In this document: positions 34 through 47,675 of the stretch, piece after piece
Position numbering within the stretch: the first letter of the stretch is position 1
Layout: each line of letters begins with the position of its first letter
DNA from: an uncultured Eubacteriales bacterium
Lineage (GTDB): Bacteria > Bacillota > Clostridia > Oscillospirales > Oscillospiraceae
Direction: 5' to 3'
Assembly: GCA_900316205.1 (NCBI GenBank)
Contig: ONBX01000013.1
Coordinates: forward strand, 1 to 47,688
DNA length: 47,688 bases
Translations under genes and position numbers: made by a program
The notes under the pieces: model-generated
The model's input: only the letters and a program-made list of their open reading frames with translations
What the model was told of the DNA's origin: nothing
Database searches by the model: none

Positions 34-130
34 ATGCCCCCCTTCACGTTCAATCTATGCCAAAATGGGAACTTTTTCGGAAGTTTCCATTTTGGCTTTT
101 CAAGCTGTCGACATTTTGTCGACAGCTTGA
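34..130 (+). repeat. 97-bp two-hairpin intergenic repeat, copy 1
   Basis: This block matches the reverse complement of 47579-47675 at 95 of 97 positions. It contains a near-perfect hairpin with arms starting GCCAAAATGG and ending CCATTTTGGC (58-95), then a second hairpin whose arms TCAAGCTGTCGACA and TGTCGACAGCTTGA (99-130) flank a TTT loop. It lies just beyond the hairpin that follows hypA. The two copies have the same orientation relative to the gene they follow. It looks like a small non-coding palindromic repeat of the REP or MITE kind, but the family is not recognised. The short ORFs that run through it are not protein-like. Confidence 0.9.
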
Positions 131-155
131 TCCCCCGGCCATCGGCCGGGGGATC
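129..155 (-). terminator. Hairpin downstream of hypA
   Basis: A perfect 12-bp stem, GATCCCCCGGCC with GGCCGGGGGATC and an ATC loop, lies just past the hypA stop codon on the minus strand. There is no T-run after it, so it may slow or protect the transcript end rather than act as a classical intrinsic terminator. It abuts the 97-bp repeat. Confidence 0.55.
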
Positions 156-159
156 GCTT

Positions 160-504
160 TTACTTGGCTTCGATTTCTTTGATGTTGTACTCGTTGCCGG
201 TGATCAGGAAAGTGTTGCCGCTTCCGCAATAAGGACAAATCTTTTTGTACTTCATCGTGGAATAGGTCTTGGCACAATCCTGGCAGTAAGTGACGGCTTC
301 CAGCTTTTCGATCTTCAGCTCCGTGTTCTGAAAGTGCTCGGTCTTGGCCCTGGCCCACTGCCAGAAATCCATAAGATACTCTGGAATGATGCCGCTGACC
401 TCGCCGACCTCCAGCGTGATGGAGCCGACCTCGGTGAGCTGGTTTTCCACCATCAGCTTTTCCACCGTGTCGATTACGTAGTAGATGGTTCCCAGTTCGT
501 GCAT
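160..504 (-). CDS. hypA: HypA-like nickel metallochaperone
   Basis: A 114-residue protein of the HypA/HybF family, which delivers nickel during [NiFe]-hydrogenase maturation. It begins MHELG, so it has the His2-Glu3 nickel-binding start of the family. It has a C-terminal zinc site made of two CxxC pairs (CQDC at about 72-75 and CPYC at about 89-92). Its length is normal for HypA. The ATG shares one base with the stop of the upstream oxidoreductase gene (TAATG), so the two are translationally coupled. A longer reading frame upstream of this ATG lies inside the neighbour and is not used. No hydrogenase genes are visible in the window. The client enzyme could therefore be encoded elsewhere, or this HypA may serve the neighbouring oxidoreductase. 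Confidence 0.9.
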   Translation of the reverse strand: MHELGTIYYVIDTVEKLMVENQLTEVGSITLEVGEVSGIIPEYLMDFWQWARAKTEHFQNTELKIEKLEAVTYCQDCAKTYSTMKYKKICPYCGSGNTFLITGNEYNIKEIEAK

Positions 505-3212
505 TACTTGGCCTTCCGATTGATCTTGATGGCCTGCTTGGCCGCGTGCTTCAGCATGGGCAGGACCTTGTCCTCGCAGCGCACCAGGTTGGAAGCCTCG
601 GGCACGTCGCGCTCCAGGTGGATGGCGTCGAACATGCAGCGGGTGGTGCAAAGGCCGCAGCCAATGCAGCGGTTCCGGTCCACGATGGTGACGCCGCAGC
701 CCAGGCAGCGGCTGGCCTCGGTCTTGACCTGCTCCTCGGTGAAGGTAAGACGGTCGTGCTCAAAGGTCTTGAGCTTCAAAGGATCATGCTGGATCTCCTG
801 GCGGGCAGGCTTGTCATAGGAATCCAATGTGAAAGCAAGATTGGACTTGTCCAGCTCGTAGAACTCGCGCAGGTTCCGTCCGCGGGTCAGGCTCTGACCG
901 TCCTGCACGAAGCGGTGCAGAGACTCGGCACCTTCGCGGCCGGCGGCAATGGCGTCGATGGCAAACTTCGGGCCGGTGTAAACGTCACCGCCGACGAAGA
1001 TGTCTTTCTGCTCGGTCTGGTAGGTGATGGCGTCGGCCAGGGCGTTGCCCTTCTTGCCGGTCTTCAGTTCGCCAACGTCCAGCTTGCCCCAGTCGATGGT
1101 CTGACCGACGGCTGCCAGCACGGAATCAACCTCGATGGTCTCAAACTTGCCGGTGCCGATGGGAGCGCGGCGGCCTTTCTCGTCAGGCTCGCCCAGTTCC
1201 ATGATCTCCACCTTCAGGCCGCAGACCTTGCCGTCCTGACCCAGGATCTCGGCGGGGCCGCAGAGGAAGCAGAACTTCACGCCCTCTTCCTTGGCTTCCT
1301 TGATCTCCTCCTTGTCAGCGGGCATCTCTTCCTCGCTGCGGCGGTAGATCACATAGGTCTCAGCACCGAGACGGACCGCAGTGCGGCACACGTCCATGGC
1401 CACATTGCCGCCGCCGATGACAGCGCACTTCTTGCCGATCTCAGGCTTGTTCCCCAGGTTCACTTCCCGCAGGAAGTCAACGCCGCCGTACACGCCGGTG
1501 AGCTCCTCGCCGGGGATGCGCAGCTTCTGGCTCTTCTGGGCGCCGATGGCCACATAGAAGCCCTTATAGCCCTGCTCGCGTAGTTGCTGGATGGTGATGT
1601 CCTTGCCGATCTCGGTGTTCATCTGGAAGTGAACGCCCATCTTCTCCAGAACCTCGATCTCGCCCTTCAGGGCGGCGCGATCCAGACGGTAGCTGGGGAT
1701 GCCCATGATGAGCATGCCGCCGGGGGCGGGGTTGCGGTCAAAAACGGTGACGTTGGTGTATCCCATATGAGCCAGGTAGTAAGCGCAGCTCAGGCCGGCG
1801 GGACCGGCGCCGATGATGGCGACCTTCTCCTCATAGGGCTTGTCGATGGGACGGCGGTAAAGAGGCTCGGGGATGTAGCGCTCCGCGCTCTTCAGATCCT
1901 GCTCGGCGATGAATTTCTTGATCTCGTCGATGGCAAGAGCCTTGTCCATGGCGCCGCGGGTGCAGGCCGCCTCGCAGCGGCGGTTGCAGACGTAACCGCA
2001 GACAGAGGGGAATGGGTTATCCTGCTTGATAAGCTTCAGCGCGTCCAGGTAGCGGCCTTCCTTAGCCAGCTTGATGTAACCCTGGATGGCGATGTGGGCA
2101 GGGCAGGCAGTCTTGCAGGGGGCGGTACCGCTCTCATGGCAGTTCTTGCGGTTATCGGCAACGTAGTTGGGGTTATACTTGTCCTTGCCCCACTTGAGAC
2201 CGGAGGGCAGCTCCTGCTTGGGATACTCCACCTCGCCGGTCTGGGTGCAGAGCTTCTGGCCCAGCTTCACGGCGCCGGCGGGGCAAACCTCCACGCACTT
2301 GCCGCAGGCAACGCACTTTTCCTTCTCCACATGGGCACGGTAGGCGGAAGCGGAGAGGTTGGGGGTGTTAAAGTACTGGCTGGTGCGCAGCGCAAAGCAC
2401 ACGCCCAGGTCGCAGTTGCAGAGACCGAAGATCTTGTCCGTGCCGTCGATGTTGGTGGTCTGGTGAACGTAGCCGTTCTCCTCGGCGCGCTTGCAGATCT
2501 GCAGCGCCTCTTCCTTGGTGATGCGGCGGCCCTTGCCGGTCTCGATCAGATATTCGGCAAAATCGCCCAGGCCGATGCAGCAGTCATCCTGAATTTCGCC
2601 GGAACCCTCGCCATAGAGACGGCGGGCGTTGCGGCAGGAGCAGTAGCCGACGGAGAGCTTTCCGTCATACTTGTCCAGCCAGTGGGAGATGTGCTCAATG
2701 GAAAGAGACTTGTTTTCCGATTGAATCGCTTTTTCCACGGGGATGACGTGCATGCCGATGCCGTCACCGCCGGGGGGGATCAGGTGGGTCTTGCCCTCCA
2801 GGGGCAGGAAGGTCATCTTGTCAAAGGAGTCAGCCAGCTCGGGGTATTTCTCAACCTGCCAGAGGACCATGTTGGTCATCTCAGCAATGCCGGGGACGAA
2901 AAGCTGGACGTACCACTGCTTTTCATGCTGGGGATTCTCCCAGTGATACTCCACAATGCCGTGATTGGCCGCGTCGGTGAGAAGCTCTTCGATGCGCTGC
3001 TCGCTCTTGCCGGTGAGCTTTGCGATTTCCGCGGTGGTCTTGGGCTTGCGCAGGCCCATTTTCAGCATGACTTCGGCGATCTCATCGCTGGAGCATGCCC
3101 GGTCAAGGATTATGTACTCGGGGTCGGTCTCGGTCAGCCTCTTGATGCCGAATTTGTAGGGGAGGCGATCGGTGATCATTTTGCCAAGGTCAAACAGAAT
3201 CTCTCTTGCCAT
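504..3212 (-). CDS. Large Fe-S/FAD oxidoreductase, GltD-type
   Basis: A 902-residue multidomain redox enzyme, probably cytoplasmic. Reading from the N-terminus: a winged-helix-like segment (about 58-90); a Cys-rich region (CSC near 192, CC near 211, CNC near 266); a ferredoxin motif CxxCxxCxxxCP (about 300-310); the double-Cys Fe-S region typical of glutamate-synthase small subunits (about 358-418); an FAD-binding GAGPAG (about 468); an NAD(P)H-binding GGGNVAMD (about 600); a GGD flavin motif (about 741); and a C-terminal CLGCG plus CxxCxxCxxxC ferredoxin site (about 836-859). The GltD core transfers electrons between NAD(P)H and Fe-S clusters; the true substrate is unknown. An ATG two codons upstream exists, but GGAGG sits only 3 bases before it and 9 bases before the ATG chosen here. 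Confidence 0.85.
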   Translation of the reverse strand: MAREILFDLGKMITDRLPYKFGIKRLTETDPEYIILDRACSSDEIAEVMLKMGLRKPKTTAEIAKLTGKSEQRIEELLTDAANHGIVEYHWENPQHEKQWYVQLFVPGIAEMTNMVLWQVEKYPELADSFDKMTFLPLEGKTHLIPPGGDGIGMHVIPVEKAIQSENKSLSIEHISHWLDKYDGKLSVGYCSCRNARRLYGEGSGEIQDDCCIGLGDFAEYLIETGKGRRITKEEALQICKRAEENGYVHQTTNIDGTDKIFGLCNCDLGVCFALRTSQYFNTPNLSASAYRAHVEKEKCVACGKCVEVCPAGAVKLGQKLCTQTGEVEYPKQELPSGLKWGKDKYNPNYVADNRKNCHESGTAPCKTACPAHIAIQGYIKLAKEGRYLDALKLIKQDNPFPSVCGYVCNRRCEAACTRGAMDKALAIDEIKKFIAEQDLKSAERYIPEPLYRRPIDKPYEEKVAIIGAGPAGLSCAYYLAHMGYTNVTVFDRNPAPGGMLIMGIPSYRLDRAALKGEIEVLEKMGVHFQMNTEIGKDITIQQLREQGYKGFYVAIGAQKSQKLRIPGEELTGVYGGVDFLREVNLGNKPEIGKKCAVIGGGNVAMDVCRTAVRLGAETYVIYRRSEEEMPADKEEIKEAKEEGVKFCFLCGPAEILGQDGKVCGLKVEIMELGEPDEKGRRAPIGTGKFETIEVDSVLAAVGQTIDWGKLDVGELKTGKKGNALADAITYQTEQKDIFVGGDVYTGPKFAIDAIAAGREGAESLHRFVQDGQSLTRGRNLREFYELDKSNLAFTLDSYDKPARQEIQHDPLKLKTFEHDRLTFTEEQVKTEASRCLGCGVTIVDRNRCIGCGLCTTRCMFDAIHLERDVPEASNLVRCEDKVLPMLKHAAKQAIKINRKAK

Positions 3213-3230
3213 TCTCATATCCCTCCATAT

Positions 3231-3258
3231 GAATTGATTGTGTACAAAAGATCAATTC
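3231..3258. promoter_or_regulatory. Inverted repeat in the oxidoreductase leader
   Basis: GAATTGAT and ATCAATTC form perfect 8-bp arms around a 12-bp centre. They lie between the predicted promoter and the start codon of the minus-strand oxidoreductase. It could be an operator or a leader hairpin; the binding protein is not known. Confidence 0.45.
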
Positions 3259-3287
3259 TAAAATACCATGTATTTGGTGTTTTTTCA

Positions 3288-3316
3288 AGTATACAATGCC
3301 CTCGCATTTGTAACAA
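3288..3316 (-). promoter_or_regulatory. Sigma-A promoter for oxidoreductase-hypA
   Basis: On the minus strand TTGTTA (3316-3311) and TATACT (3293-3288) are spaced by 17 bp, close to the vegetative consensus. This gives a leader of about 70 nt before the oxidoreductase start. Confidence 0.65.
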
Positions 3317-3383
3317 AAGGGTGGGAATTGGTCGATACTGACCCGACAGGACTTCGTATCCGCGAAGCCGAAAGAAAAAAGGA

Positions 3384-3412
3384 TTGATTCTGCGTTCGAT
3401 TTGTAGTACAAT
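3384..3412 (+). promoter_or_regulatory. Sigma-A promoter for the SRP RNA
   Basis: TTGATT and TACAAT are spaced by 17 bp. Transcription would start near 3419, just ahead of the SRP RNA closing stem at 3428. This fits a stable RNA gene with its own promoter. Confidence 0.75.
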
Positions 3413-3427
3413 GCCATCGTGGCTTTT

Positions 3428-3708
3428 GACAAGGCTGCACTAGTCGGGGAGCCAGCGGTGCCCTGTAACCTGCAATCCGCTATAGCAGGGATGAATTCCT
3501 GGCCGAGGGGATGTTCTGTGTCGTCTGACCCCGGTAAGCAGCGTTGAAGATCCGGTCTCGCGCAAGGTCGACCCGTGAACCATGTCAGGCGGGGAACCGA
3601 GCAGCATTAAGCGGTGCTCGGCTTGTGCCGTGAGGTCGCCGGGTCCGAGCCGGCTGCCGGCGGTAACGGATATAGCGCATGCTTCGGAGCCCGGTGTGCA
3701 GTCTTGTC
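3428..3708 (+). ncRNA. ffs: Signal recognition particle RNA, large bacterial type
   Basis: The RNA scaffold of the signal recognition particle, which binds Ffh and targets nascent membrane proteins. The sequence follows the Bacillus-type 6S/scRNA closely. It has the 5' Alu-domain block with GGTGCCCTGTAACCTGC and AATCCGCTATAGCAGG. It has the conserved Ffh-binding hairpin around TGTCAGGCGGGGAACC (3583-3598) followed by GAGCAGCATTAA. It has a long closing stem pairing 3428-3440 with 3696-3708. Its position directly upstream of dnaX is the usual one in Bacillota. The ends are set from the closing stem and are accurate to a few bases. A reading frame extending upstream from dnaX into this RNA is not coding. 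Confidence 0.95.
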
Positions 3709-3746
3709 AAGAGCCACAAGTCTATGAAAAGAGGGGAGGAGCCGGC

Positions 3747-5477
3747 TTGTATCAGGCGCTGTATCGAAAATGGCGTCCCAAGACCTTTGATGAAGTCATC
3801 GGTCAGCAACACATTACCGAGACACTGAAAAGTCAGGTGAAGAACGACCGGCTTTCCCATGCCTATCTTTTCATCGGCACCCGCGGCACCGGCAAGACCA
3901 CATGCGCCAGGATTCTGGCCCGGGCGGTGAACTGCGAGCATCCGGAAAACGGCAACCCCTGCGGGAAGTGCGCGGCCTGCCGCGGCATCCTGGAGGGCAG
4001 CGTCATGGATGTGGTGGAGTTGGATGCTGCCTCCAACAACGGCGTGGACAATGTCCGTGCCCTGCGGGAAGAGGCGGTCTTTTCTCCCACCACGGTCAAG
4101 AAGCGTGTCTATATCATTGACGAAGTGCACATGCTCTCTCTGGCGGCCTTCAACGCTCTCCTCAAGATCCTGGAGGAGCCGCCGGAGCATCTGATGTTCA
4201 TTCTGGCCACGACCGAGCTTCAAAAGGTCCCGGCCACCATTCTGTCCCGCTGCCAGCGGCACAGTTTCCGTCGTCTGGAGGCTGAGACGATCTCCAATTA
4301 CCTGCTTGAGATCGCGGGAAGAGAGAATCTGACTTTAGACAAAGAAGCGGCTGATTTGATCGCACGCCTGTCTGACGGCGGCGTGCGCGATTCCCTGAGC
4401 CTGCTGGATCAGTGTTCCGTTCATGAAAAAATCGATGTGGAAGCGGTCTACAGCACCCTGGGCCTCGCCGGAAAGCGGCGGATCTCCGAACTGCTGGACG
4501 CCGTTTTGCGGCATAACAGCGAAAAGGCGCTGCAGCTCTTTGCCTCCTTGTGGATGGAAGGGAAGGACCCTGCCTCGGTTCTGCGGGAACTCAGCACTCT
4601 CCTGCGGGATGTGATGCTGCTTCGCGTTGCGCCGAAGGCGGGCTTGAATCTGATTTCAGGCGGATTTGAAGAACGTACGCTGCTGTATTTCGTGAAGCGC
4701 ATGACCACGGAGCAGGTCATCGCCGCCATGGAGACCATCCAGAAGACGCTCTCCACCCTGCGGGATGTGAGCAATCCGCGGACTGCGGCGGAGCTCTGCC
4801 TGGTGTCTCTCTGCTGCGACAGCGCGGGAGACAGCATTACAAGCCTGCGCTCCCGCATCTCCAAGCTGGAGGAACAGATGGAGCGCGGCGTGCCAATGGC
4901 GCCATCGACTCGACAGGCATATCCCGAAACGGAAGCGCCTGAGCCTCTCGGCCCAGATGCAGATCCGCAGTATGAGGACCTTGATCCTTTCCCCGAAGCT
5001 CCGCTCCCGGATCCGCCGGAAGAATATGATTCCTTTCCCGAGGAAGGGATCATGAACATGCCTTCGGCTGAGGCACCGGGTGAGAGCCCTTCACTGCCGG
5101 CGCCTGCCGAAACTGCTCCTGCTCCTGAGCCGTCGTCCTCCTACGCACCTCTTGACGGGAACAGTCGGGAACTGTGGAACAGGATCCGATCGGCGGTCAT
5201 GCCCGCTCTTCCTCTGGATGTCCAGATGCTGCTGCAGGATGAGGAGCGTGTCACCGGTTCTCTTGACGGCAATGTGATCCTGGTGGAGACGCAGAATGAT
5301 TTTCAGGCCAAGCGCTTCCAGCGACAGGATGTGCTTCAGGCCTTCCTGGCTGCCGGAAGGGATGTACTTGGCCGCGATGTCCGCTTCCAGGTAAGAGAAC
5401 GGCAGACAGAGAGCCGGAAGGTCCGCAGTCTGGACGATCTCAGACAGTTTAAAGAAGTTCATTTTATTTCAGAATAA
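3747..5477 (+). CDS. dnaX: DNA polymerase III subunit gamma/tau
   Basis: The ATPase of the replicative clamp loader, 576 residues. The N-terminal AAA+ domain shows Walker A GTRGTGKTT (44-52), four zinc-binding cysteines (63, 72, 75, 78), Walker B IIDEVH (about 123-128) and the SRC sensor motif. A Pro/Glu-rich linker (about 390-475) leads to a C-terminal tau-like domain. The start is TTG, chosen because LYQALYRKWRP is the family N-terminus, a GGGGAGGA Shine-Dalgarno lies 6 bases upstream, and any earlier start would run into the SRP RNA. The length is near that of Bacillus DnaX. No slippery frameshift site like that of E. coli dnaX was noticed. Confidence 0.96.
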   Translation: MYQALYRKWRPKTFDEVIGQQHITETLKSQVKNDRLSHAYLFIGTRGTGKTTCARILARAVNCEHPENGNPCGKCAACRGILEGSVMDVVELDAASNNGVDNVRALREEAVFSPTTVKKRVYIIDEVHMLSLAAFNALLKILEEPPEHLMFILATTELQKVPATILSRCQRHSFRRLEAETISNYLLEIAGRENLTLDKEAADLIARLSDGGVRDSLSLLDQCSVHEKIDVEAVYSTLGLAGKRRISELLDAVLRHNSEKALQLFASLWMEGKDPASVLRELSTLLRDVMLLRVAPKAGLNLISGGFEERTLLYFVKRMTTEQVIAAMETIQKTLSTLRDVSNPRTAAELCLVSLCCDSAGDSITSLRSRISKLEEQMERGVPMAPSTRQAYPETEAPEPLGPDADPQYEDLDPFPEAPLPDPPEEYDSFPEEGIMNMPSAEAPGESPSLPAPAETAPAPEPSSSYAPLDGNSRELWNRIRSAVMPALPLDVQMLLQDEERVTGSLDGNVILVETQNDFQAKRFQRQDVLQAFLAAGRDVLGRDVRFQVRERQTESRKVRSLDDLRQFKEVHFISE

Positions 5478-5479
5478 AG

Positions 5480-5537
5480 CTCCATGCGTCTGATTTGCAC
5501 TACGACGCATGAGAGCCGCAGGCGCATGGAGGTTTTT
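5480..5537 (+). terminator. Terminator with a competing fold after dnaX
   Basis: CTCCATGCG (5480-5488) pairs with CGCATGGAG (5523-5531) and is followed by GTTTTT, a terminator-like hairpin. The same left arm, as CATGCGTC (5483-5490), can instead pair with GACGCATG (5504-5511). The two folds exclude each other, which is an attenuator-like layout in front of ybaB. Confidence 0.6.
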
Positions 5538-5541
5538 GTAT

Positions 5542-5640
5542 GTCATTCGGTTGCCCCAACAGGGGCGAGAATGACGCATTGTAATCAATTATTTACTGTG
5601 GAAGCGGGGCTTTCACAGTAAAATATCGCCGCTCAGCGGC
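5542..5640 (+). repeat. Chain of hairpins in the ybaB leader
   Basis: Three further palindromes lie between dnaX and ybaB. The first is GTCATTC/GAATGAC with an inner GCCCC/GGGGC (5542-5575). The second is TTTACTGTG/CACAGTAAA (5592-5622). The third is a short GCCGCT/AGCGGC (5628-5640). No protein-coding sequence fits here. They may be leader RNA structure or the debris of small palindromic repeats. Confidence 0.6.
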
Positions 5641-5657
5641 AGATCGGAGTATGAATT

Positions 5658-6002
5658 ATGGCAAAAGGCGGTTTTCGCGGGGGTATGCCCGGCAACCAGA
5701 TGAACATGATGAAGCAGGCCCAGAAGATGCAGCAGGAGTTCATGAAGATGCAGCAGGAGCTGGAGTCTACCGACTTTGAATTCACCGCAGGCGGCGGTGC
5801 TGTCAAGGCGGTCGTGACCGGCACCAGAGAGTTTTCCTCCATCGTCATTGATCCCGAAGTTGTGGATCCCGAGGATGTGGAAATGCTGCAGGATCTGATC
5901 CTCACTGCGGTCAACGGCGCTCTGAAAAAGGCCGATGAACAAACCAGCAAGGCCATGAATAAGCTGCAGGGCGGCCTCGGCGGTTTCCCCGGCCTGTTCT
6001 GA
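5658..6002 (+). CDS. ybaB: YbaB/EbfC nucleoid-associated protein
   Basis: A 114-residue DNA-binding protein of the YbaB/EbfC family, which forms a tweezer-like dimer on DNA. The family core is clear: a long Met/Gln-rich N-terminal helix (QMNMMKQAQKMQQEF), the central TAGGGAVKAVVTG block and a C-terminal amphipathic helix ending in a Gly/Phe-rich tail. Its position after dnaX is classical. The gene normally downstream, recR, is not present; a bidirectional terminator and a minus-strand lipoprotein gene follow instead. A GGAG 9 bases upstream supports the start. Confidence 0.93.
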   Translation: MAKGGFRGGMPGNQMNMMKQAQKMQQEFMKMQQELESTDFEFTAGGGAVKAVVTGTREFSSIVIDPEVVDPEDVEMLQDLILTAVNGALKKADEQTSKAMNKLQGGLGGFPGLF

Positions 6003-6014
6003 TTTTCATTCCGC

Positions 6015-6049
6015 AAAAAACCTGCCGCACCTTTCGGTGCGGCAGGTTT
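6015..6049. terminator. Bidirectional terminator ybaB / lipoprotein
   Basis: An 11-bp stem CCTGCCGCACC/GGTGCGGCAGG with a TTTC loop, flanked by A6 on the left and T-rich sequence on the right. It serves ybaB on the plus strand and the lipoprotein gene on the minus strand. Confidence 0.85.
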
Positions 6050-6060
6050 CCTCATAAGGA

Positions 6061-6807: not shown

Positions 6808-6880
6808 CTGCTTCTCATCCTTTCTGTCATCAGTATAGCATGTTGCTGTGATCGCAGCAAGAAACAATACGGAGAATGCC

Positions 6881-7717: not shown

Positions 7718-7754
7718 AAGGACGGAAGTCATCATGACTTCCGTCCTTCTTTTA
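7716..7754. terminator. Bidirectional terminator
   Basis: Stem GGACGGAAGTCA/TGACTTCCGTCC with a short TCA loop, with A-rich sequence on the left and TTCTTTT on the right. It separates the convergent radical SAM and DUF1002 genes. Confidence 0.9.
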
Positions 7755-7758
7755 TGCG

Positions 7759-8631: not shown

Positions 8632-8781
8632 GATAAGCTTCCTTTCTTCATACAATCGATATCAATTGAACCGGCAGCCTTGTCTGTTACGAAGGGCTGT
8701 CCTGCATTTTTCTCGGGTGTCCATAAACTACCACGGGTGCCGGGAAAAAGATAGTCCTTTTTGTGAATATTAAGAAAGCTT

Positions 8782-10110: not shown

Positions 10111-10155
10111 CAAAAGACTCCTTACGCGGCGCCCTGCCGGGATCGAGAGGCCTGT

Positions 10156-37994: not shown

Positions 37995-38009
37995 GCGCTG
38001 TTCTAAGCT

Positions 38010-38065
38010 GCCTCCGCTTCTCATACACTCGTAGCGACGAGACCATGAGAGCGGAGGCGTTTTTT
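38010..38065 (+). terminator. Terminator hairpin containing the spoIVA Shine-Dalgarno
   Basis: GCCTCCGCT + CTCAT pairs with ATGAGAGCGGAGGC (38045-38058), with one bulged T. An inner CTCGT/ACGAG stem has an AGCG loop. It is followed by GTTTTTT (38059-38065). The T-run ends exactly where the spoIVA ATG begins, and the GGAGG that could serve spoIVA is inside the right arm. Confidence 0.8.
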
Positions 38066-39544: not shown

Positions 39545-39579
39545 TCTTCCCTTTGACTTCCCGGGGAGGAGACGATATA

Positions 39580-40314: not shown

Positions 40315-40332
40315 CGGGATAGGGAGAATGAT

Positions 40333-41709
40333 ATGGCCAATAAAAAGAAAACGGTTTATGTCTGCGCCGAATGCGGCTATGAGACCGCAAACTGGGCGGG
40401 GAAATGCCCCTCCTGCGGCAGCTGGAACAGTATGAAGGAGCTGACGTTGGACGATAAGCCGGGAATCCGCTCTGATTCCCGACGCTCGCTTCCCAAAGCG
40501 AAAAAAATGTCTCAGCTGGACACGGAGGCGGAGGTCCGCTTTGCAACCGGTATCTCAGAATTTGACCGGGTCTTGGGCGGAGGCGCGGTTCTGGGGTCTC
40601 TGAACCTGGTGGGCGGCGCTCCGGGCATCGGCAAATCCACCCTTCTCCTGCAGATGTGCGCCACCCTGGAGCCGGATCGGACGATCCTCTATGTTACCGC
40701 GGAAGAGAGCGAACGCCAGCTCAAGCTCAGAGCGCAGCGCCTCGGCGTGGAAAACGAGGAACTGTTTGTCCTTGCCGAGACCGAGCTGGAAAGCATCCTG
40801 GCTGTGGTGGATGATCTCAAGCCGGAGATCCTCATCCTGGACTCCATCCAGACCGTTTCCAGTGCCGAATCGGATTCCGCGCCAGGCAGCGTCAGCCAGG
40901 TACGGGAGTGCACCATGCGGCTTATGCGGCTGGCCAAGGAAAAGGGCACCACCGTTTTCGTTGTCGGCCATATTACCAAGGAGGGCAGCATTGCCGGTCC
41001 CAAGGTGCTGGAGCATATGGTGGACTGTGTGCTCTATTTTGAAGGCGAGCGGAGCACAAGCTTCCGGATCCTCCGTGCCGCTAAAAATCGCTTCGGTTCC
41101 ACCAACGAGATCGGCGTATTTGAGATGAATGAAGAGGGGCTGCGCTGCGTGGATAATCCCTCTGAGCTGCTCCTTTCCGGCAGGCCGGCCAACAGCCCGG
41201 GAACCTGCGTTGCCTGCGTCATCGAAGGCACCCGTCCCATTCTGGCGGAGGTCCAGGCTTTGGTTACGCCCACCGGTTATAATGCGGCCAGGAGAAGCAA
41301 CGGCATCGACTACAACCGGGCAGCCATGCTGCTGGCCGTGCTGGAAAAGCGCGGCGGGATCCCGGTAGGCAGCTGTGACGCCTATATCAATGTTGTGGGA
41401 GGTCTCAGTCTGGAGGAGCCGGCTGCGGATCTTGCCACAGCTCTCGCTGTGGCCTCCAGCTACCTGGATCGGCCTTTGGGCTCGGAACTTGCAGCCATCG
41501 GAGAGCTGGGCCTGGCAGGGGAGATCCGCAGCGTCAGCAATCTGAATCAGCGCCTTTCCGAAATCGCACGGCTGGGCTTTCAGCGCTGCGTGATCCCGGC
41601 TCACGTACGCAACGAGATCCGCTGCCCGGACAATTTGAAGCTTATCCCCGTGAAGAGCATCGGCGAGGCGATCGGCGCGGTTTTGGGTAAGAAGGCTGCG
41701 GAACGATAG
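40333..41709 (+). CDS. radA: DNA repair protein RadA
   Basis: A 458-residue recombination ATPase that extends branch migration with RecA. It has an N-terminal zinc finger (CAEC at about 11-14 and CPSC at about 25-28), Walker A GGAPGIGKSTLL (about 93-104), the RadA-specific KNRFGS motif (about 252-257) and a C-terminal Lon-like domain. Its length is typical. It is 18 bases after the amidase gene and may share its transcript. Confidence 0.96.
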   Translation: MANKKKTVYVCAECGYETANWAGKCPSCGSWNSMKELTLDDKPGIRSDSRRSLPKAKKMSQLDTEAEVRFATGISEFDRVLGGGAVLGSLNLVGGAPGIGKSTLLLQMCATLEPDRTILYVTAEESERQLKLRAQRLGVENEELFVLAETELESILAVVDDLKPEILILDSIQTVSSAESDSAPGSVSQVRECTMRLMRLAKEKGTTVFVVGHITKEGSIAGPKVLEHMVDCVLYFEGERSTSFRILRAAKNRFGSTNEIGVFEMNEEGLRCVDNPSELLLSGRPANSPGTCVACVIEGTRPILAEVQALVTPTGYNAARRSNGIDYNRAAMLLAVLEKRGGIPVGSCDAYINVVGGLSLEEPAADLATALAVASSYLDRPLGSELAAIGELGLAGEIRSVSNLNQRLSEIARLGFQRCVIPAHVRNEIRCPDNLKLIPVKSIGEAIGAVLGKKAAER

Positions 41710-41711
41710 AA

Positions 41712-41729
41712 TTGTGATTTAATTCACAA
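41712..41729. promoter_or_regulatory. Rex-like palindrome behind radA
   Basis: TTGTGA-N6-TCACAA is a perfect match to the known Rex operator form. It lies two bases after the radA stop codon, between convergent genes and without a promoter nearby. Chance or a small hairpin is as likely as a real Rex site. Confidence 0.35.
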
Positions 41730-41740
41730 ATTAAGCATTC

Positions 41741-41790
41741 AAAAAACACAGGCTATCCGGTTCCTGACCATCGGATAACCTGTGTTTTTT
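41741..41790. terminator. Bidirectional terminator radA / xerC
   Basis: AAAAAACACAGG with CTATCCG pairs with CGGATA and CCTGTGTTTTTT around a short loop. Runs of A and T on the two sides serve both convergent genes. Confidence 0.9.
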
Positions 41791-41811
41791 GCACCCGAAA
41801 AGGGAAGCCCC

Positions 41812-42801
41812 TCATTCCTCCCGTTCTTTTCGCGTTTTACGCCCGATCGGATTGGCCATCGCAGCCTCATGGAGCGAAGCATTGTCCAAGTGGGTATAGA
41901 TCTGCGTGGTATTCAGGTTGCTGTGACCTAAAACCTCCTGAAGCGCTCTGGTATCCACACCGTTTTTCAGCATCAGGGTAGCAGCCGTGTGCCGCAGCTT
42001 GTGCGGTGAATAACGGGACGCGTCCAGGCCGGCCAGCAGCAGCTTTTTCTCCAGCATCTGCTGAACGCCTCTTACACCGAATCTGCAATTTTTCTGGCTG
42101 ATAAACAGCGCATTTTTATCTTTTTCGTGGACATTCTCAACATTTCTTACCATCAAATAGTCATCGATCGCTTCCCGGCAGCCCTCGCCGAAATAAACCA
42201 CGCGTTCTTTGTTGCCTTTACCAAGGACCCGCACGTGGTCCTCATACACATCCGTTACATTGAGCCCAACCAATTCCGAAACCCGCAGACCGCAGCTGAT
42301 AAAGAGCATCAGGATGGCATAGTCCCGAAGCGCATAGGGACCTTCACAGGCAGCCAGCAGCTTTTCGCATTCCGATTCTTCCAGGTAACGCGGCAAGCTG
42401 GCCTGGCGCTTGGGCATATCAAGTTCCAGGGTGATATTTCGGTCCAAAAGATGCCGTTTGGCGGTGAGATATTGAAAAAAAGATTTTACTGTGGAAGTAC
42501 GGCGGCAGCGACTGGCAGCAGAGAGCGACTGATCCGATTCCGGCGAAAAGGACTGATAACGGTAGAGCTCCTCAATTTTGATCGCCTTGAGAAAGTCCAG
42601 GTCAACGTCCGTGATATCGATCTCATCAAACGGTACGCTGCGATCCACCAGATGTCGTCTGCGTTTGAGGAACCGCAGAAGGATCTTCAGATCCAGATAA
42701 TAGGCCATCACAGTGCGATCCGAGTGTCCGCGCACCGTGGAATGGTATTCCAGAAACTCCAGCACGATATCCGGAACGTCATGGATCTCATCCAGCTTCA
42801 T
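41812..42801 (-). CDS. xerC: Tyrosine recombinase, XerC/XerD type
   Basis: A 329-residue site-specific recombinase, most likely one that resolves chromosome dimers at dif. An N-terminal SAM-like core-binding domain comes first. The catalytic domain has the full set of active residues: Arg in SCGLRVSELVGL, Lys in GKGNKERVV, HKLRHTAAT (His and Arg), LGHSNLNTTQIYTH (His and the nucleophile Tyr). No mobile-element partner genes or att sites were seen. The start MKLDEIHDV has GGAG 11 bases upstream; an earlier ATG 8 codons upstream has no such signal. Its promoter lies about 115 bases upstream. Confidence 0.9.
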   Translation of the reverse strand: MKLDEIHDVPDIVLEFLEYHSTVRGHSDRTVMAYYLDLKILLRFLKRRRHLVDRSVPFDEIDITDVDLDFLKAIKIEELYRYQSFSPESDQSLSAASRCRRTSTVKSFFQYLTAKRHLLDRNITLELDMPKRQASLPRYLEESECEKLLAACEGPYALRDYAILMLFISCGLRVSELVGLNVTDVYEDHVRVLGKGNKERVVYFGEGCREAIDDYLMVRNVENVHEKDKNALFISQKNCRFGVRGVQQMLEKKLLLAGLDASRYSPHKLRHTAATLMLKNGVDTRALQEVLGHSNLNTTQIYTHLDNASLHEAAMANPIGRKTRKEREE

Positions 42802-42837
42802 AAGAGATAAAGCTCCTTTCTCCATAATTCACGTTAT

Positions 42838-42869
42838 AAATCTCGCTAAATTTATATTATGCGAGATTT
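42838..42869. promoter_or_regulatory. Inverted repeat in the xerC leader
   Basis: AAATCTCGC and GCGAGATTT form perfect 9-bp arms with a 14-base A/T-rich centre, 37 bases upstream of the xerC start. It could be an operator or leader hairpin. Confidence 0.5.
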
Positions 42870-42915
42870 CGTATCTATTTTGTTACGGGGCTGCAAACAC
42901 TTCCCCGTTGGTTCC

Positions 42916-42944
42916 AGTATAGAAAAGATTCGGCCATTTGTCAA
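42916..42944 (-). promoter_or_regulatory. Sigma-A promoter for xerC
   Basis: On the minus strand a perfect TTGACA (42944-42939) and TATACT (42921-42916) are spaced by 17 bp. The leader then carries an ACGGGG/CCCCGT hairpin and the inverted repeat at 42838-42869. Confidence 0.75.
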
Positions 42945-43279
42945 GAATCATTTTCCGCTTTCGCTTACGGCTTCGCAAAACGCCTGGATCCAGTTATCTC
43001 ATCCAATTCCATTGACACAAGGCGTCACACGCCCAAGCAGTCGGTCCCATCTGTAATTCGCGGGATCATACCTATTTTCTTCCTGTTGCTGTCGCCTGCC
43101 GGAATGCTACACTTCCTGGAGTTGTGTTCTTCTGATTCAGCCAGCGAGCTCCTGTGGTTTTACAGAGAATCGACCACAGCCTTCCCGGCGCCGCGTTCCC
43201 ACGACTGCGCCGGGAAATCCTGCCGTTCTTTCCCACTCGGAAGGATCGCATATATCAGAGCTGAAACATCTTGTTTTAC
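42945..43279. other. Gene-free stretch with strong RNA-like hairpins
   Basis: No convincing protein is encoded; the two frames of 65-82 codons here have no family features, no Shine-Dalgarno and no coding bias. The middle part holds perfect stems: TTCCCGGCGC/GCGCCGGGAA (43182-43216) and CTGTGGT/ACCACAG (43152-43179). Weaker pairings around them include CTGG/CCAG at 43116-43144. It may be a structured RNA on either strand or an eroded element. No known RNA family was recognised. Confidence 0.5.
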
Positions 43280-43320
43280 ATTTGTCAAAAAATTGACAAA
43301 TTACGGACTCGCTTTATACT
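43280..43320 (+). promoter_or_regulatory. Strong promoter with operator-like inverted repeat
   Basis: TTGACA (43293-43298) and TATACT (43315-43320) are spaced by 16 bp on the plus strand. The -35 lies in the right arm of a perfect inverted repeat, ATTTGTCAA-N4-TTGACAAAT (43280-43301). No protein gene follows before the terminator at 43422. Confidence 0.7.
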
Positions 43321-43326
43321 TGCCGA

Positions 43327-43460
43327 CTTGGTGATGCTATTCACAAGAAAAACGCATAGTATCAGCTAAGTCTCTCGAAATGTTCACTTTTTGTGTTTTT
43401 CTCTTTGTACTGCCTCTTCTCAAAAAAACAGGCTTCCATTGGATGGAAGCCTGTTTTTCA
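43327..43460 (+). ncRNA. Candidate small RNA
   Basis: A transcript of about 130 nt is predicted from the strong promoter at 43293-43320 to the intrinsic terminator at 43424-43458. The interval contains no protein frame with a Shine-Dalgarno. It would be read toward the 3' end of the minus-strand pseudo-ATPase gene but stops before it. It is not similar to any RNA family that can be recognised by eye. Confidence 0.45.
43422..43458. terminator. Bidirectional terminator
   Basis: AAAAACAGGCTTCCA and TGGAAGCCTGTTTTT pair around a TTGGA loop, with A7 on the left and T5 on the right. It ends the pseudo-ATPase transcript on the minus strand and the candidate small RNA on the plus strand. Confidence 0.92.
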
Positions 43461-43476
43461 AATCGTTGGGTTGTAA

Positions 43477-45129
43477 TCAGAACTCGTCTTTGGGAGCGGC
43501 AAACCTGCTCATATCGATCAGAGGATCCTTTGTCACGCGGATCGCATTGAGCAGCGTGGCAAGGACCGCAGCCGAATCCATAAACAGCACGAACCAGATG
43601 CTGCTGAGACCCAGCATGCTGAGAAAGATCATCAGCGCTTTTACCGCGAAAACGAAGATCGCATTTTCCTTCGCCACCTGGACCATCCGGCGGGAAAGCT
43701 GCATGGCAAAAGGCAGCGCACTTGCCTTCTCCGGCGGGATCGCCACATCGGCAAACTTGGTTTTCTGGCTGAAACGTACGTCCACATCCGCGGCGCTGTG
43801 CATTTCAAGGCCGTTGGAATACAGGAACAACACATGGTTCCTGGTTCCCTGGTTCAGATCCTCAATGTGCTGGAGCTTGCGCTCAGTGTCGCATTCGCCG
43901 AAGACCTCGTCGAAGCCAAGCTTATCCGCAAACTTCTGGCTCTCCCCTGCCCCGTCCTCTGTCAAAAGAACGGTCTCACGCACACCGAGGTCCCGAACGC
44001 CTTCCAGCAGTTCAAGACCGATGTCGTTGGTCTGGGAAGCAAAGACGAGATACCCTACATAGCGGCCGGATACGGTGAGATAGAAGACCTCTCCCTCTTC
44101 CTCCACTTCAGGGACAGCCACGCCTCTGGCCGTGAGGTAATCGTCGGTTGCCAGGATCACGGGCGATCCGCCGATCTTGACCTCAACGCCGCAGCCGGGA
44201 ACGTCAACAAAATCGCTGATCACTTCCAGCTTGTAATCCTGCTCGCTCAGCGCGGGGATGGCCTTTGCAAAGCCCTGCTCGGAGTAGTACACCGCATGGG
44301 CAACGAAGCTCAGGAAGGTTTTTCTGTCCAGAACGTCGGAATGCACGCTCTGGAGCTCCGGAGCACCGGAGGCAAAAATACCGGCCTTGTCGAAAACAGC
44401 AACATTGGTATCTGCCGTTTTCTCCATTACCTTTCCATTGCGGAACAGGATGCCGTTTCTTGCGCCGTAGCAAAGGCCCACCAGCGCGGTATAGGGCATC
44501 GCAATGACCACAGATGCCGGGATCGCCGTCATCATGATCATCAATGCTCTGTGGATCGCCACGCTGTAAGTGTAGTCGCCGAGCCTGGGCAGCAGGAAGA
44601 TATAGAGCAGCGCGATGACCATGGCGATCTTGAGCAGCAGATCGGCGCTGCGGAAGGCGTCCGCTTCCATCTGCAGCTTTCCGGCATCCTCTGCCGCGAA
44701 CATCTCCCCTGCCTGGTCAAGGATCTCGTCATTCTCTCCGCTCAGAAGGTCAAGCGCGGCACTGCGGGTCCTTTTTCGCGCATACTCCACGACAAGAATG
44801 CTCAGCTGATAGAGGAGAAGCATCGCCGCACCTTCCGAAGGATAGCCGATCAGGAAGGAAACGAACGCAATGAACAGGACCAGAATAGGCGAAGCAAAAT
44901 AATCTTTCTCCAGAACGCTGTCAAAGGCTTTCAGCCCCAGATCAAAGGCAGATGCGATCGCGGACAGGACGAGCAGAATGACTCTCACGACCTGATTTTT
45001 GATCACAAACGCGCCCAGGATCAGGAGGACAGCCGCCAGGATCAGTCGTCCGATCAAGATCATATCAGGAGAGCCTGCGGCGCTTTTGCTCTTCACCGCA
45101 AACCTCGGGCGTTCGTTTATCGGGCTCAT
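43477..45129 (-). CDS. Degenerate P-type ATPase without actuator domain
   Basis: A 550-residue membrane protein with the skeleton of a P1B metal-transporting ATPase. Hydrophobic helices are at about 23-43, 47-66, 79-95, 100-115, 165-182, 194-222 and 489-530. The segment YGARNGILFRNGKVMEK, then VFDKAG (Asp247), is where normal pumps have DKTGT. The catalytic features have decayed: AIPAS replaces CPC, DKAGIF replaces DKTGTL, SEQGFAKAI replaces SEHP, TEDG replaces TGDN, and YSNGLEM replaces GDGxND. The actuator domain (normally over 100 residues) is reduced to about 45 acidic residues (120-165). It cannot pump in the usual way; a binding or regulatory role is possible. The start ATG has GGAGGTG 6 bases upstream, whereas a TTG five codons earlier has none. 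Confidence 0.8.
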   Translation of the reverse strand: MSPINERPRFAVKSKSAAGSPDMILIGRLILAAVLLILGAFVIKNQVVRVILLVLSAIASAFDLGLKAFDSVLEKDYFASPILVLFIAFVSFLIGYPSEGAAMLLLYQLSILVVEYARKRTRSAALDLLSGENDEILDQAGEMFAAEDAGKLQMEADAFRSADLLLKIAMVIALLYIFLLPRLGDYTYSVAIHRALMIMMTAIPASVVIAMPYTALVGLCYGARNGILFRNGKVMEKTADTNVAVFDKAGIFASGAPELQSVHSDVLDRKTFLSFVAHAVYYSEQGFAKAIPALSEQDYKLEVISDFVDVPGCGVEVKIGGSPVILATDDYLTARGVAVPEVEEEGEVFYLTVSGRYVGYLVFASQTNDIGLELLEGVRDLGVRETVLLTEDGAGESQKFADKLGFDEVFGECDTERKLQHIEDLNQGTRNHVLFLYSNGLEMHSAADVDVRFSQKTKFADVAIPPEKASALPFAMQLSRRMVQVAKENAIFVFAVKALMIFLSMLGLSSIWFVLFMDSAAVLATLLNAIRVTKDPLIDMSRFAAPKDEF

Positions 45130-45179
45130 ACCAGCCACCTCCAAGAATTATCTTTCTAAAACTTGCTGAAAAACCGGCC

Positions 45180-46148
45180 TCAGGCCTTGCCGTCGGAACC
45201 CAGAACGTGGACGATCTTGTGGGCGACCATGTCCTTCACAGCCTGACGGGCGGGCTTCAGATACTGCCGCGGGTCGAAATGATCCGGATGCTCGGCAAAG
45301 TACTTGCGGATATTGGCGGTCATGGCAAGACGGATATCGGAGTCGATATTGATCTTGCAGACAGCCAGCTTCGCGGCCTCACGCAGCTGATCCTCGGGGA
45401 TGCCGATGGCGTCAGGCATATTGCCGCCGTACTGGTTGACCATCTTCACGAACTCCTGAGGGACGGAGGAAGAACCGTGCAGAACAATGGGGAAACCGGG
45501 CAGACGCTTGATGCACTCGCGCAGCACGTCAAAGCGCAGCGGGGGCGGGACCAGAATGCCCTCGGCATTGCGGGTGCACTGGGAAGCCTTGAACTTATAT
45601 GCGCCGTGGGAGGTGCCGATGGCAATGGCCAGGGAGTCGCATCCGGTGCGGGAGACGAACTCTTCCACTTCCTCGGGACGGGTATAGCTCTCCTTGCCGT
45701 GCGCCACGTTGACCTCGTCCTCCACGCCGGCCAGGGTGCCCAGCTCAGCCTCGACCACAACACCGTGATCGTGGGCATACTCTACCACCTGACGGGTCAG
45801 GGCGATGTTCTCCTCAAAGGGCTTGGAGGAAGCGTCGATCATAACGGAGGTAAAGCCGCCGTCGATGCAGCTCTTGCACAGTTCAAAGGTATCGCCATGG
45901 TCAAGATGCAGTGCGATAGGGATCTCGGGATTCTCGATGATGGCAGCTTCCACCAGCTTCACCAGGTAGGTGTGGTTGGCGTAGGCGCGAGCGCCCTTGG
46001 ACACCTGAAGGATGACGGGGCTCTTCAGCTCGCCGGCAGCCTCGGTGATGCCCTGGACGATCTCCATGTTGTTCACGTTGAACGCGCCGATGGCATAGCC
46101 GCCGTCATAGGCCTTCGCAAACATTTCTTTTGTAGTAACAAGTGCCAT
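45180..46148 (-). CDS. fba: Class II fructose-bisphosphate aldolase
   Basis: A 322-residue zinc-dependent aldolase of glycolysis and gluconeogenesis, splitting fructose 1,6-bisphosphate. It begins MALVTTKEMFAKAYDGGYAI. It has the zinc-binding HLDHGDTFE (about 83-91), VEAELGTLAG, an AIGTSHGAYK histidine and the substrate loop VLHGSSSVP. CDPs of the class I type are absent. The start has AAGGAGAAC upstream. The pseudo-ATPase gene follows 50 bases downstream with only a weak hairpin between, so read-through is likely. Confidence 0.95.
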   Translation of the reverse strand: MALVTTKEMFAKAYDGGYAIGAFNVNNMEIVQGITEAAGELKSPVILQVSKGARAYANHTYLVKLVEAAIIENPEIPIALHLDHGDTFELCKSCIDGGFTSVMIDASSKPFEENIALTRQVVEYAHDHGVVVEAELGTLAGVEDEVNVAHGKESYTRPEEVEEFVSRTGCDSLAIAIGTSHGAYKFKASQCTRNAEGILVPPPLRFDVLRECIKRLPGFPIVLHGSSSVPQEFVKMVNQYGGNMPDAIGIPEDQLREAAKLAVCKINIDSDIRLAMTANIRKYFAEHPDHFDPRQYLKPARQAVKDMVAHKIVHVLGSDGKA

Positions 46149-46187
46149 AGTAGTTCTCCTTGTCAAATTTTTTGTACAAATAGCATA

Positions 46188-46235
46188 TTTACAAATTTGC
46201 TTTTCTATTATATTCTCATTCCATGCCAGAATCAA
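46188..46235. promoter_or_regulatory. Overlapping divergent promoters of fba and pfp
   Basis: The plus strand has TTTACA (46188-46193) and TATTCT (46211-46216), spaced by 17 bp, for pfp. The minus strand has TTGATT (46235-46230) and TATAAT (46212-46207), spaced by 17 bp, for fba. The two -10 elements share bases 46211-46212, so polymerase can occupy only one at a time. Confidence 0.7.
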
Positions 46236-46290
46236 GAAGCACCTTTCACAAATATGCAAAATTTTTTAGTTTTACTGGAGGAAATCACAC

Positions 46291-47532
46291 ATGAGTGAAA
46301 AACTGATCGGCGCAGCTATCTTTGGCCAGTCCGGCGGGCCCACCGCCGTCATCAACGCCAGTGCCTATGGCGTGATCCGCGCTGCACTGGACGCTGAAGA
46401 AATCACCAAGGTTTACGGTGCCGAGCACGGGATCAAAGGCGTTCTGGACGACCGCTTTTTTGTGATGGATGAGGAGGATCCCGAGGAACTGCGTCTGCTG
46501 CTGCACACCCCTTCTTCCGCTCTCGGCTCCTGCCGCTACAAGATGGCCGATCCCGAGGTCGACGACACCGATTATAAGCGGATCCTTGAGATCTTCAAGA
46601 AGTACAATGTCCGCTATTTCTTCTATAACGGCGGCAACGATTCCATGGATACCTGCAACAAGATCAGCCGTTTTATGGAGTCTGCCGACTATGAATGCCG
46701 GGTCATGGGCGTTCCCAAGACCATTGACAATGACCTCTACGGCACCGACCACTGCCCCGGCTTTGCCAGCGCCGCCAAGTACATTGCCACCTCCTGCATG
46801 GAGATCAACAAAGACGCCCGCGTTTATGACAACGGCATGATCACCATCGTGGAGATCATGGGCCGTCACGCAGGCTGGCTGGCCGGCAGCGCCGCCCTGG
46901 CTACCGAGTTCGGCTCAGGTCCGGATCTGATCTATCTGCCCGAGGTCGATTTCGATATGGACAAGTTCCTGAGCGACGTGGAGAAGATCTACAAGAAGAA
47001 CGGCAAGGTTCTGGTCGCCGTATCCGAAGGCATCCATTATGCTGACGGCAGCTTCGTTTCCGAGGCAAAGACCTCCGCTACCGACGGCTTCGGTCATGCG
47101 CAGCTTGGTGGTCTGGCCTCCATGCTCGCAGAAATCGTGAAGGAGCGTACCGGTGCCAAGGTTCGCGGCATCGAGCTGAGTCTGCTGCAGCGCTGCGGTG
47201 CCCACCTGGCTTCCGAGACGGATATTGAAGAAGCCTGCGCCTCCGGCATGGAAGCCGTTCATCAGGCTGTGAGCGGTGTTTCCGGCAAGATGGTTGCTTT
47301 CCAGCGCGAATCTATTGACGGTGCTTACCACTGCAAGCTGGTCCTGATCCCCCTCACCGACGTGGCAAACTACGAGAAGAAGGTCCCTCTGGAGTGGATC
47401 AACGACGAGCACAACGGCCTCAAGCATGAGTTTATCGATTACGTCCTGCCTCTCATTCAGGGCGAACCAAAGCTCCCGCTGGAGCATTCCCTCCCCCGCT
47501 ATGCCAGACTGAAAAAGGTCCTGGCCAAGTAA
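46291..47532 (+). CDS. pfp: 6-phosphofructokinase, pyrophosphate-dependent type
   Basis: A 413-residue enzyme converting fructose 6-phosphate to the 1,6-bisphosphate. Two positions indicate pyrophosphate rather than ATP as donor. GGNDSMDT (about 113-120) has Asp where ATP enzymes have Gly, and VPKTIDND (about 140-147) has Lys where ATP enzymes have Gly. The MGRHAGWLAG segment (about 190-199) and a longer C-terminus also fit the PPi group. PPi use makes the step reversible. The ATG follows GGAGG by 8 bases. The product is the substrate of the divergently transcribed aldolase. Confidence 0.93.
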   Translation: MSEKLIGAAIFGQSGGPTAVINASAYGVIRAALDAEEITKVYGAEHGIKGVLDDRFFVMDEEDPEELRLLLHTPSSALGSCRYKMADPEVDDTDYKRILEIFKKYNVRYFFYNGGNDSMDTCNKISRFMESADYECRVMGVPKTIDNDLYGTDHCPGFASAAKYIATSCMEINKDARVYDNGMITIVEIMGRHAGWLAGSAALATEFGSGPDLIYLPEVDFDMDKFLSDVEKIYKKNGKVLVAVSEGIHYADGSFVSEAKTSATDGFGHAQLGGLASMLAEIVKERTGAKVRGIELSLLQRCGAHLASETDIEEACASGMEAVHQAVSGVSGKMVAFQRESIDGAYHCKLVLIPLTDVANYEKKVPLEWINDEHNGLKHEFIDYVLPLIQGEPKLPLEHSLPRYARLKKVLAK

Positions 47533-47540
47533 ACACATTA

Positions 47541-47579
47541 AAAAAACCTGGAACACCGTTTCGGCGTTCCAGGTTTTTT
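47541..47579 (+). terminator. Terminator after pfp
   Basis: AAAAAACCTGGAAC and GTTCCAGGTTTTTT pair around a loop with an inner CCG/CGG. The 97-bp repeat begins at its last base. Confidence 0.95.
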
Positions 47580-47675
47580 CAAGCTGTCTACAAAGTGTCG
47601 ACAGCTTGAAAAGCCAAAATGGAAACTTCCGAAAAAGTTCCCATTTTGGCATAGATTGAACGTGAAGGGGGGCAT
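47579..47675 (-). repeat. 97-bp two-hairpin intergenic repeat, copy 2
   Basis: The reverse complement of copy 1 (34-130), with two mismatches in 97, both in the GTCGACA hairpin (one at the loop, one making a mismatch in the arm). Relative to the gene it follows (pfp), it is placed like copy 1 is relative to hypA: terminator hairpin first, then the GTCGACA hairpin, then the CCAAAATGG hairpin, then the G-rich end. Confidence 0.92.

What the first reader, a model, noticed from the sequence alone, without database searches (positions are those of the whole stretch)
34..47675. Near-identical 97-bp palindromic element at both ends of the window
Copies at 34-130 and 47579-47675 are inverted and 95/97 identical, far too close for chance. 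Each holds two large hairpins and sits immediately behind a gene's terminator hairpin, in the same orientation relative to that gene. Such placement suggests a mobile or selected repeat that settles at transcript 3' ends, possibly moved in trans by a transposase. The high identity means recent spread or conversion.
Basis: seen in the sequence. Interest (0 to 1): 0.7.

Follow-up and report, generated by a model that had tools for sequence, protein, structure and literature searches.

The report
Mini-transposon that duplicates terminator hairpins
The repeat is the outer part of a small, gene-less transposon of the IS1182 family that inserts into the hairpins ending bacterial genes and leaves a full copy of the hairpin on each side, so that the shape of the target, rather than a fixed length, seems to set what is duplicated.

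Summary
The repeat is real (95/97), but it is only the outer part of a ~162-bp miniature transposon (MITE). The window is one whole contig of an 88-contig assembly. It ends in this element on both sides because both copies are also split by a multicopy IS110-family element at which the assembly stops.

The MITE has IS1182-type ends (CAAGCTGTCGACAAA / CAGACTGTAGACAAA). IS1182-family transposases with such ends occur in the same genus and in finished replicons of other genera.

The striking part is the target: terminator hairpins, left complete on both sides. This holds for 82 of 100 complete copies, against 0 of 800 mismatched flank pairs. Duplications are 12-43 bp and centred on the hairpin dyad exactly in 60 of 82, within 0.5 bp in 70. 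The sister species has a single hairpin at both window sites; here it recurs beyond the element on two other contigs (25/25, 39/39). Five of seven IS1182 elements in finished replicons do the same; two do not, nor do the three complete ones of this genus.

IS1272, another IS1182 member, deletes its target hairpin; stem-loop duplication was only proposed there. New variant of a known kind.

The parts
1..23 (-). Left end of an IS110-family element inserted in the left MITE copy; the contig starts inside it
   Evidence: Matches the IS110 left end seen in 5 other contigs of this genome; in relatives the same sequence precedes an IS110-family transposase gene; junction read
24..129 (-). Left MITE copy (left part only; the rest lies beyond the IS110 element, on contig C43)
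59..96 (-). Second hairpin of the MITE
   Evidence: conserved pairing
101..129 (-). Left end of the MITE: palindrome made of the terminal inverted repeat and its inverse
130..154 (-). Terminator hairpin = target duplication, 25 bp; second copy on contig C43 (25 of 25 identical)
   Evidence: single in sister species G021
47541..47579 (+). Terminator hairpin = target duplication, 39 bp; second copy on contig C69 (39 of 39 identical)
   Evidence: single in sister species G021
47580..47688 (+). Right MITE copy (left part only; cut by the contig end)
   Evidence: its right end on C69 carries the IS110 right end
47580..47608 (+). Left end of the MITE: palindrome of the terminal inverted repeat

Best explanation
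It is a non-autonomous miniature element (MITE, ~162 bp) of the IS1182 transposon family. An IS1182-type DDE transposase, acting in trans, uses the CAAGCTGTCGACAAA and CAGACTGTAGACAAA ends and joins them to a target palindrome at the outer foot of its stem on both strands, most simply when the palindrome is extruded as a cruciform. Filling in the gaps copies the whole stem-loop, so the hairpin ends up on both sides and the length of the duplication follows the hairpin. Intrinsic terminators are the commonest such palindromes, so copies collect at gene 3' ends. The copied hairpin probably keeps termination working, so insertion is nearly harmless, and it supplies a fresh target for further insertions. 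Shown here: the duplication, its symmetry about the dyad, the empty sites, the family of the ends and the placement. Inferred: transposase action in trans, joining at the stem feet, the cruciform, preserved termination.
For: 82 of 100 complete copies with both flanks carry the duplicated hairpin, 0 of 800 mismatched flank pairs do. The duplication is centred on the palindrome exactly in 60 of 82 and within 0.5 bp in 70 of 82, at lengths from 12 to 43 bp. Single hairpins at both window sites in sister species G021 and in G067, and exact second copies on C43 and C69. 75 of 80 copies face a gene 3' end, median 27 bp from stop to hairpin. Ends match those of a complete IS1182 element of the genus (L276: 514-aa product, 445 bits to NF033551, cut-off 270). 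Five of seven two-ended IS1182 elements in finished replicons have exact palindromic duplications of 20-30 bp.
Against: No IS1182 element with these ends is in the own assembly; only a C-terminal fragment of another subgroup. The three complete elements of the genus (L276, L260, L279) and two of seven in finished replicons (L386, L388) lie between two different hairpins. 18 of 100 MITE copies show no duplication at the threshold. The IS1272 branch of the family deletes its target hairpin (PMC5678879, PMC4923244). No activity was assayed.
Confidence: 0.75

Rival explanations
1. Same transposon, but the target is a single-stranded hairpin at the replication fork rather than a cruciform.
For: Hairpins form readily in single strands; the sequence data do not separate the two.
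Against: A duplication symmetric about the dyad needs joining at equivalent feet on both strands, which a cruciform offers directly (inference).
Confidence: 0.15
2. REP/RAYT-type repeat: hairpin element moved by a Y1 (HUH) transposase to gene ends, without target duplication.
For: Hairpins, gene-end placement, high copy number; three Y1_Tnp matches over the cut-off in the genome.
Against: Long inverted terminal repeats and target duplications; no element ends in the fetched flanks of the three Y1_Tnp genes.
Confidence: 0.02
3. The hairpin was not duplicated on insertion: the element landed beside it, and later template switching or gene conversion copied the hairpin across.
For: Hairpin arms here are rewritten at times: inverted loops (L076, L123, L209) and target-matching bases inside the left palindrome in 18 of 100.
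Against: 82 of 100 copies share the pattern, the repeats abut both ends exactly, and it recurs in five other genera.
Confidence: 0.05
4. A selected regulatory RNA element (for example a 3'-UTR stabiliser or terminator module) rather than a transposon.
For: Strong folds; 12 of 29 pairs show changes on both sides in 28 selected copies; 3'-end placement.
Against: Sites empty in sister species, target duplications, transposon-type ends; no Rfam family at gathering score over the window copies. A later host use is not excluded.
Confidence: 0.03

Closest known systems
IS1272 and TnSha1 (IS1182 family) of staphylococci: PMC5678879 (abstract, sections 22 and 24, first of two parts of the discussion, passages) and PMC4923244 (passages)
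   Same: Same transposase family; target is a hairpin recognised by structure, often a terminator, of 21-85 bp with no fixed sequence
   Different: IS1272 replaces (deletes) the stem-loop and leaves no duplication; here it is duplicated, the route that PMC5678879 draws as pathway b without an example in what I read
MITEs assigned to ISMac2 (IS1182 family) in Methanosarcina acetivorans: PMC3852290 (passages)
   Same: Short non-autonomous IS1182-type elements, 160 and 169 bp, 14 and 7 copies
   Different: Listed with 26 and 25, then 4 and 0, which I read as inverted-repeat and direct-repeat sizes (column heads not shown); no duplicated hairpin in the passages seen
REP sequences and RAYTs (recalled; PMC2817692 seen as a search listing only)
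   Same: Short palindromic repeats at gene ends
   Different: Y1 transposase, no duplication (recalled); the ends here are of DDE type
IS110/IS621 bridge-RNA elements: PMC11208160 (passages)
   Same: An IS110-family element sits at one fixed site in 12 of 23 right ends, with a junction that contains CT
   Different: It is a passenger in this MITE, not its mover; its RNA-coding region is not in the assembly, so guiding was not tested

Membership tests
MITE of the IS1182 family | Terminal inverted repeats shared with IS1182-family elements | tested here: met
   MITE CAAGCTGTCGACAAA / CAGACTGTAGACAAA; L276 CAGCCTGTAGACAAAG / CAGACCGTAGACAAAC, and similar ends in finished replicons
MITE of the IS1182 family | Partner gene is an IS1182 transposase | tested here: met
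   L276 product 445 bits to NF033551 (cut-off 270), Pfam PF13751, PF05598, PF01609
MITE of the IS1182 family | Partner present in the same genome | tested here: not met
   Only a 57-position C-terminal fragment of another subgroup in this assembly; multicopy elements are poorly assembled here, so absence is not certain. This is usual for MITEs but not a requirement for membership
MITE of the IS1182 family | Short, multicopy, mobile | tested here: met
   Mostly 161-169 bp, 24 left ends in this genome, both window sites empty in a sister species
MITE of the IS1182 family | Mobilisation by the transposase in an assay | not testable with these tools
   Needs an experiment
IS1272-type stem-loop replacement | Target is a hairpin | tested here: met
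IS1272-type stem-loop replacement | Hairpin lost, no target duplication | tested here: not met
   Hairpin kept on both sides in 82 of 100; empty sites
REP/RAYT | Y1 transposase gene flanked by copies of the repeat | tested here: not met
   Three Y1_Tnp matches, no element ends in their 3.2-3.3-kb loci
IS110 (passenger at 1-23) | IS110-family transposase in the element | tested here: inconclusive
   Related element in G027 has it (222 bits, cut-off 140); in the own assembly only the ends are present

The most novel reading that the evidence does not exclude
A branch of IS1182 transposases are structure-reading integrases: they join transposon ends at the two feet of an extruded palindrome, so the target duplication is exactly one stem-loop of any size, termination survives, and each insertion makes a second target. 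Serial arrays follow (L168 hairpin-element-hairpin-element-hairpin; L086 and L124 similar), and snap-back copying writes target sequence into the element's own terminal hairpin.
Probability: 0.6. Interest if true: 0.72.

Novelty: new variant of a known kind. Interest (0 to 1): 0.62.

Why it matters
DDE transposases normally cut the two target strands a set distance apart, so the duplication has a set length (recalled). Here its length follows the hairpin and stays centred on the dyad over a wide range of lengths. That is natural evidence, from about 80 insertions, for a route that the IS1272 authors drew only as a possibility, and it suggests that the transposase reads shape. It would explain why such repeats collect at gene ends, why they look harmless and how arrays can grow, and it makes a direct test possible: vary the stem and read the duplication.

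Tried and rejected
REP/RAYT reading: rejected for want of element ends near the three Y1_Tnp matches.

The longer sequence at contig ends was first taken for the autonomous partner of the MITE; relatives showed an IS110-family element inserted in the MITE.

A sequence next to two copies (L080, L086) that resembles the C-terminus of a large serine recombinase (recalled resemblance) was noted and not followed.

Rfam: over the window only the SRP RNA reaches gathering score; the four weak matches near copies in L003 and L090 are all below their gathering scores.

A first count of gene orientation used open frames cut at slice edges and was unreliable; it was replaced by a codon-scored gene caller and is not used. 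The test 'no predicted gene spans the element' (0 of 80) is weak, because an interrupted gene would appear as two halves.

An exact scan for the IS110/MITE right junction in genome contigs found nothing. Two reviews of insertion sequences were not held, so what they and ISfinder list for IS1182 direct repeats could not be checked. That no report of duplicated hairpins as a rule was seen rests only on searches and the papers read. Passages of PMC3196728 and PMC10383233 added nothing on hairpin targets.

Rows dropped: of 103 complete copies three lacked 20 bp of flank. Copies cut by contig ends, truncated, or split by IS110 are not among the 100. In one search, 20 of the 100 lacked 700 bp of flank on a side. 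For one search, 28 copies were picked to differ in the second hairpin.

Full report
WHAT WAS CHECKED. The two 97-bp copies are real: 95 of 97 positions agree in inverted orientation and the match extends to 107 nt at 95%. With their terminator hairpins they fold much better than shuffles. The window is the whole of contig C65 in a 2.78-Mb, 88-contig assembly, and a search of that assembly gives 26 matches of 122 bits or more, many of them at contig ends.

THE WHOLE ELEMENT. Copies inside contigs show that the 97 bp is only the left part. A complete copy starts CAAGCTGTCGACAAAGTGTCGACAGCTTG (a perfect palindrome of the left terminal repeat and its inverse), goes on with a second hairpin and a G-rich third hairpin, and ends TTTGTCTACAGTCTG. 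Of 103 complete copies found in all loci then held, 55 are 161-163 bp long and 7 are 169 bp. The ends are imperfect inverted repeats of each other. In 28 copies picked to differ, 12 of 29 consensus pairs have at least one sequence changed on both sides with the pair kept.

WHY IT SITS AT BOTH ENDS. Six left ends in this genome, the window's left one included, run into a second sequence, and 12 of 23 right ends, all at contig edges, carry its other end. In relatives the same sequence lies upstream of an IS110-family transposase (222 bits, cut-off 140). The body of the IS110 element is not in this assembly. So an IS110-family element sits at one fixed site in about half of the copies, and the assembly stops there. 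The window's left copy continues on contig C43 and the right one on C69, both with the IS110 end.

THE TARGET. Around complete copies the terminator hairpin occurs twice. 100 of the 103 copies had enough flank. 82 of 100 carry a direct repeat scoring 11 or more, against 0 of 800 pairs made from the left flank of one copy and the right flank of another. The repeats are 12-43 bp (median 28), begin with A in 71 and end with T in 74 of 82. When the outer flanks are joined to show the empty site, the centre of the duplication coincides with that of the palindrome in 60 of 82 and lies within 0.5 bp in 70; two lie 9.5-10 bp off. A fixed-length duplication would not follow the hairpin like this.

EMPTY SITES. 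Sister species G021 matches the two flanks at 93% and 98%, both on its contig C1. It has a single hairpin at both places, followed by the sequence that in our genome lies on C69 or C43. G067 is empty at both as well. In our genome the hairpin is repeated across the element: 25 of 25 bp (left) and 39 of 39 (right). Six more left ends find a partner among the IS110-bearing right ends by the same test, at 27/31 to 28/28.

PLACEMENT. Of 80 copies with at least 700 bp on each side, 75 face at least one gene 3' end, with a median of 27 bp from stop codon to hairpin; no predicted gene spans a copy. Neighbours are convergent in 32, co-directional in 21 and 8 (left end or right end towards the gene end), divergent in 1, with one neighbour missing in 18. 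In all gaps of 50-800 bp of the longer loci, element-bearing ones included, convergent, the two co-directional and divergent arrangements are 57, 83, 54 and 57 of 251.

WHAT MOVES IT. The end CAGACTGTAGACAAA occurs 19 times in this genome; with one more base (G) it occurs in 30 of 101 genomes of the genus, with several different interiors. One interior is a transposase gene. A complete 1,637-bp element (L276) has ends CAGCCTGTAGACAAAG and CAGACCGTAGACAAAC and a 514-aa product matching the IS1182 model at 445 bits (cut-off 270) and three Pfam transposase domains. Relatives of it were found in 16 of 101 genus genomes at E <= 1e-10, not in our own. In our assembly only a C-terminal fragment of another IS1182 subgroup was seen. 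The partner is absent, lost or unassembled. The MITE was found in 14 of 37 genus genomes and in 0 of 23 genomes of other families of the order (16 rang, two of which, G003 and G027, match only the IS110 part).

BEYOND THIS GENUS. Of 331 plasmid-collection records with a relative of the transposase I fetched eight, chosen from non-clinical sources. Seven have both ends. Five of seven show exact palindromic duplications: Acetoanaerobium 24 bp, Peribacillus pB 24, Sutcliffiella 30, Lactococcus 20, Cetobacterium 22. Two (Peribacillus pA, Exiguobacterium) lie between two different hairpins; in the eighth the left end was not found. The three complete elements of the window's genus (L276, L260, L279) also lie between two different hairpins. 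Recombination between copies or mis-joined assemblies may explain these; I did not test it. It is the main result against a simple story.

HOW IT PROBABLY WORKS. The simplest reading is that transposon 3' ends are joined at the 5' foot of each stem of an extruded palindrome and the gaps are filled in, which duplicates the stem-loop. Wan et al. 2017 (PMC5678879; abstract, sections 22 and 24, first of two parts of the discussion, passages) draw this as pathway b, while their IS1272 replaces the stem-loop and leaves no duplication. Furi et al. 2016 (PMC4923244; passages) report the same loss for IS1272 and TnSha1 at terminators and cite a review that some IS1182 members target palindromes. MITEs assigned to an IS1182 element are listed for Methanosarcina (PMC3852290; passages). 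In seven paper searches I saw no report of duplicated hairpins as a rule; key reviews were not held, so this is not a claim of priority.

SECONDARY SIGNS. Loops are inverted between the two hairpin copies in L076, L123 and L209. The bases just inside the left palindrome match the reverse complement of the adjoining target for 5 or more nt in 18 of 100 copies, against a mean of 2.2 and a maximum of 5 in 200 shuffles. Both fit snap-back copying at imperfect palindromes (inference). Duplicated targets can be hit again: L168 holds hairpin-element-hairpin-element-hairpin, L086 the same with a disrupted second element, L124 a MITE followed by a different element with the same right end.

VERDICT. 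Ordinary in class (a MITE with IS1182-type ends), unusual in its target rule. New variant of a known kind; interest 0.62.

Noticed in passing
window 1-23; L013; L051-L059, L063-L065: An IS110-family element sits at one fixed site of the MITE's third hairpin in 12 of 23 right ends, with CTT shared by both junctions, which fits a CT core. Its RNA-coding region is not assembled, so whether its guide matches the MITE is untested.
   Followed up: partly
L168 5551-5900; L086 1300-1600; L124 2060-2600: Tandem arrays hairpin-element-hairpin-element: insertion seems to regenerate its own target.
   Followed up: partly
complete copies, for example L083, L188, L148: Bases inside the left palindrome copy the adjoining target (18 of 100 with 5 or more nt), perhaps a footprint of present or past sites.
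   Followed up: partly
L076, L123, L209; pairs L008-L058 and L017-L056: Loops inverted between the two hairpin copies, and paired changes in both arms between copies.
   Followed up: no
L224-L253: Several other short element families in the genus share the end CAGACTGTAGACAAAG with quite different interiors; L242 is a 69-bp palindromic one.
   Followed up: no
L080, L086: Two MITE copies run into the same foreign sequence, which reads like the C-terminus of a large serine recombinase (recalled).
   Followed up: no
window 3435-3701: Bacterial large SRP RNA (RF01854, 188.5 bits).
   Followed up: no
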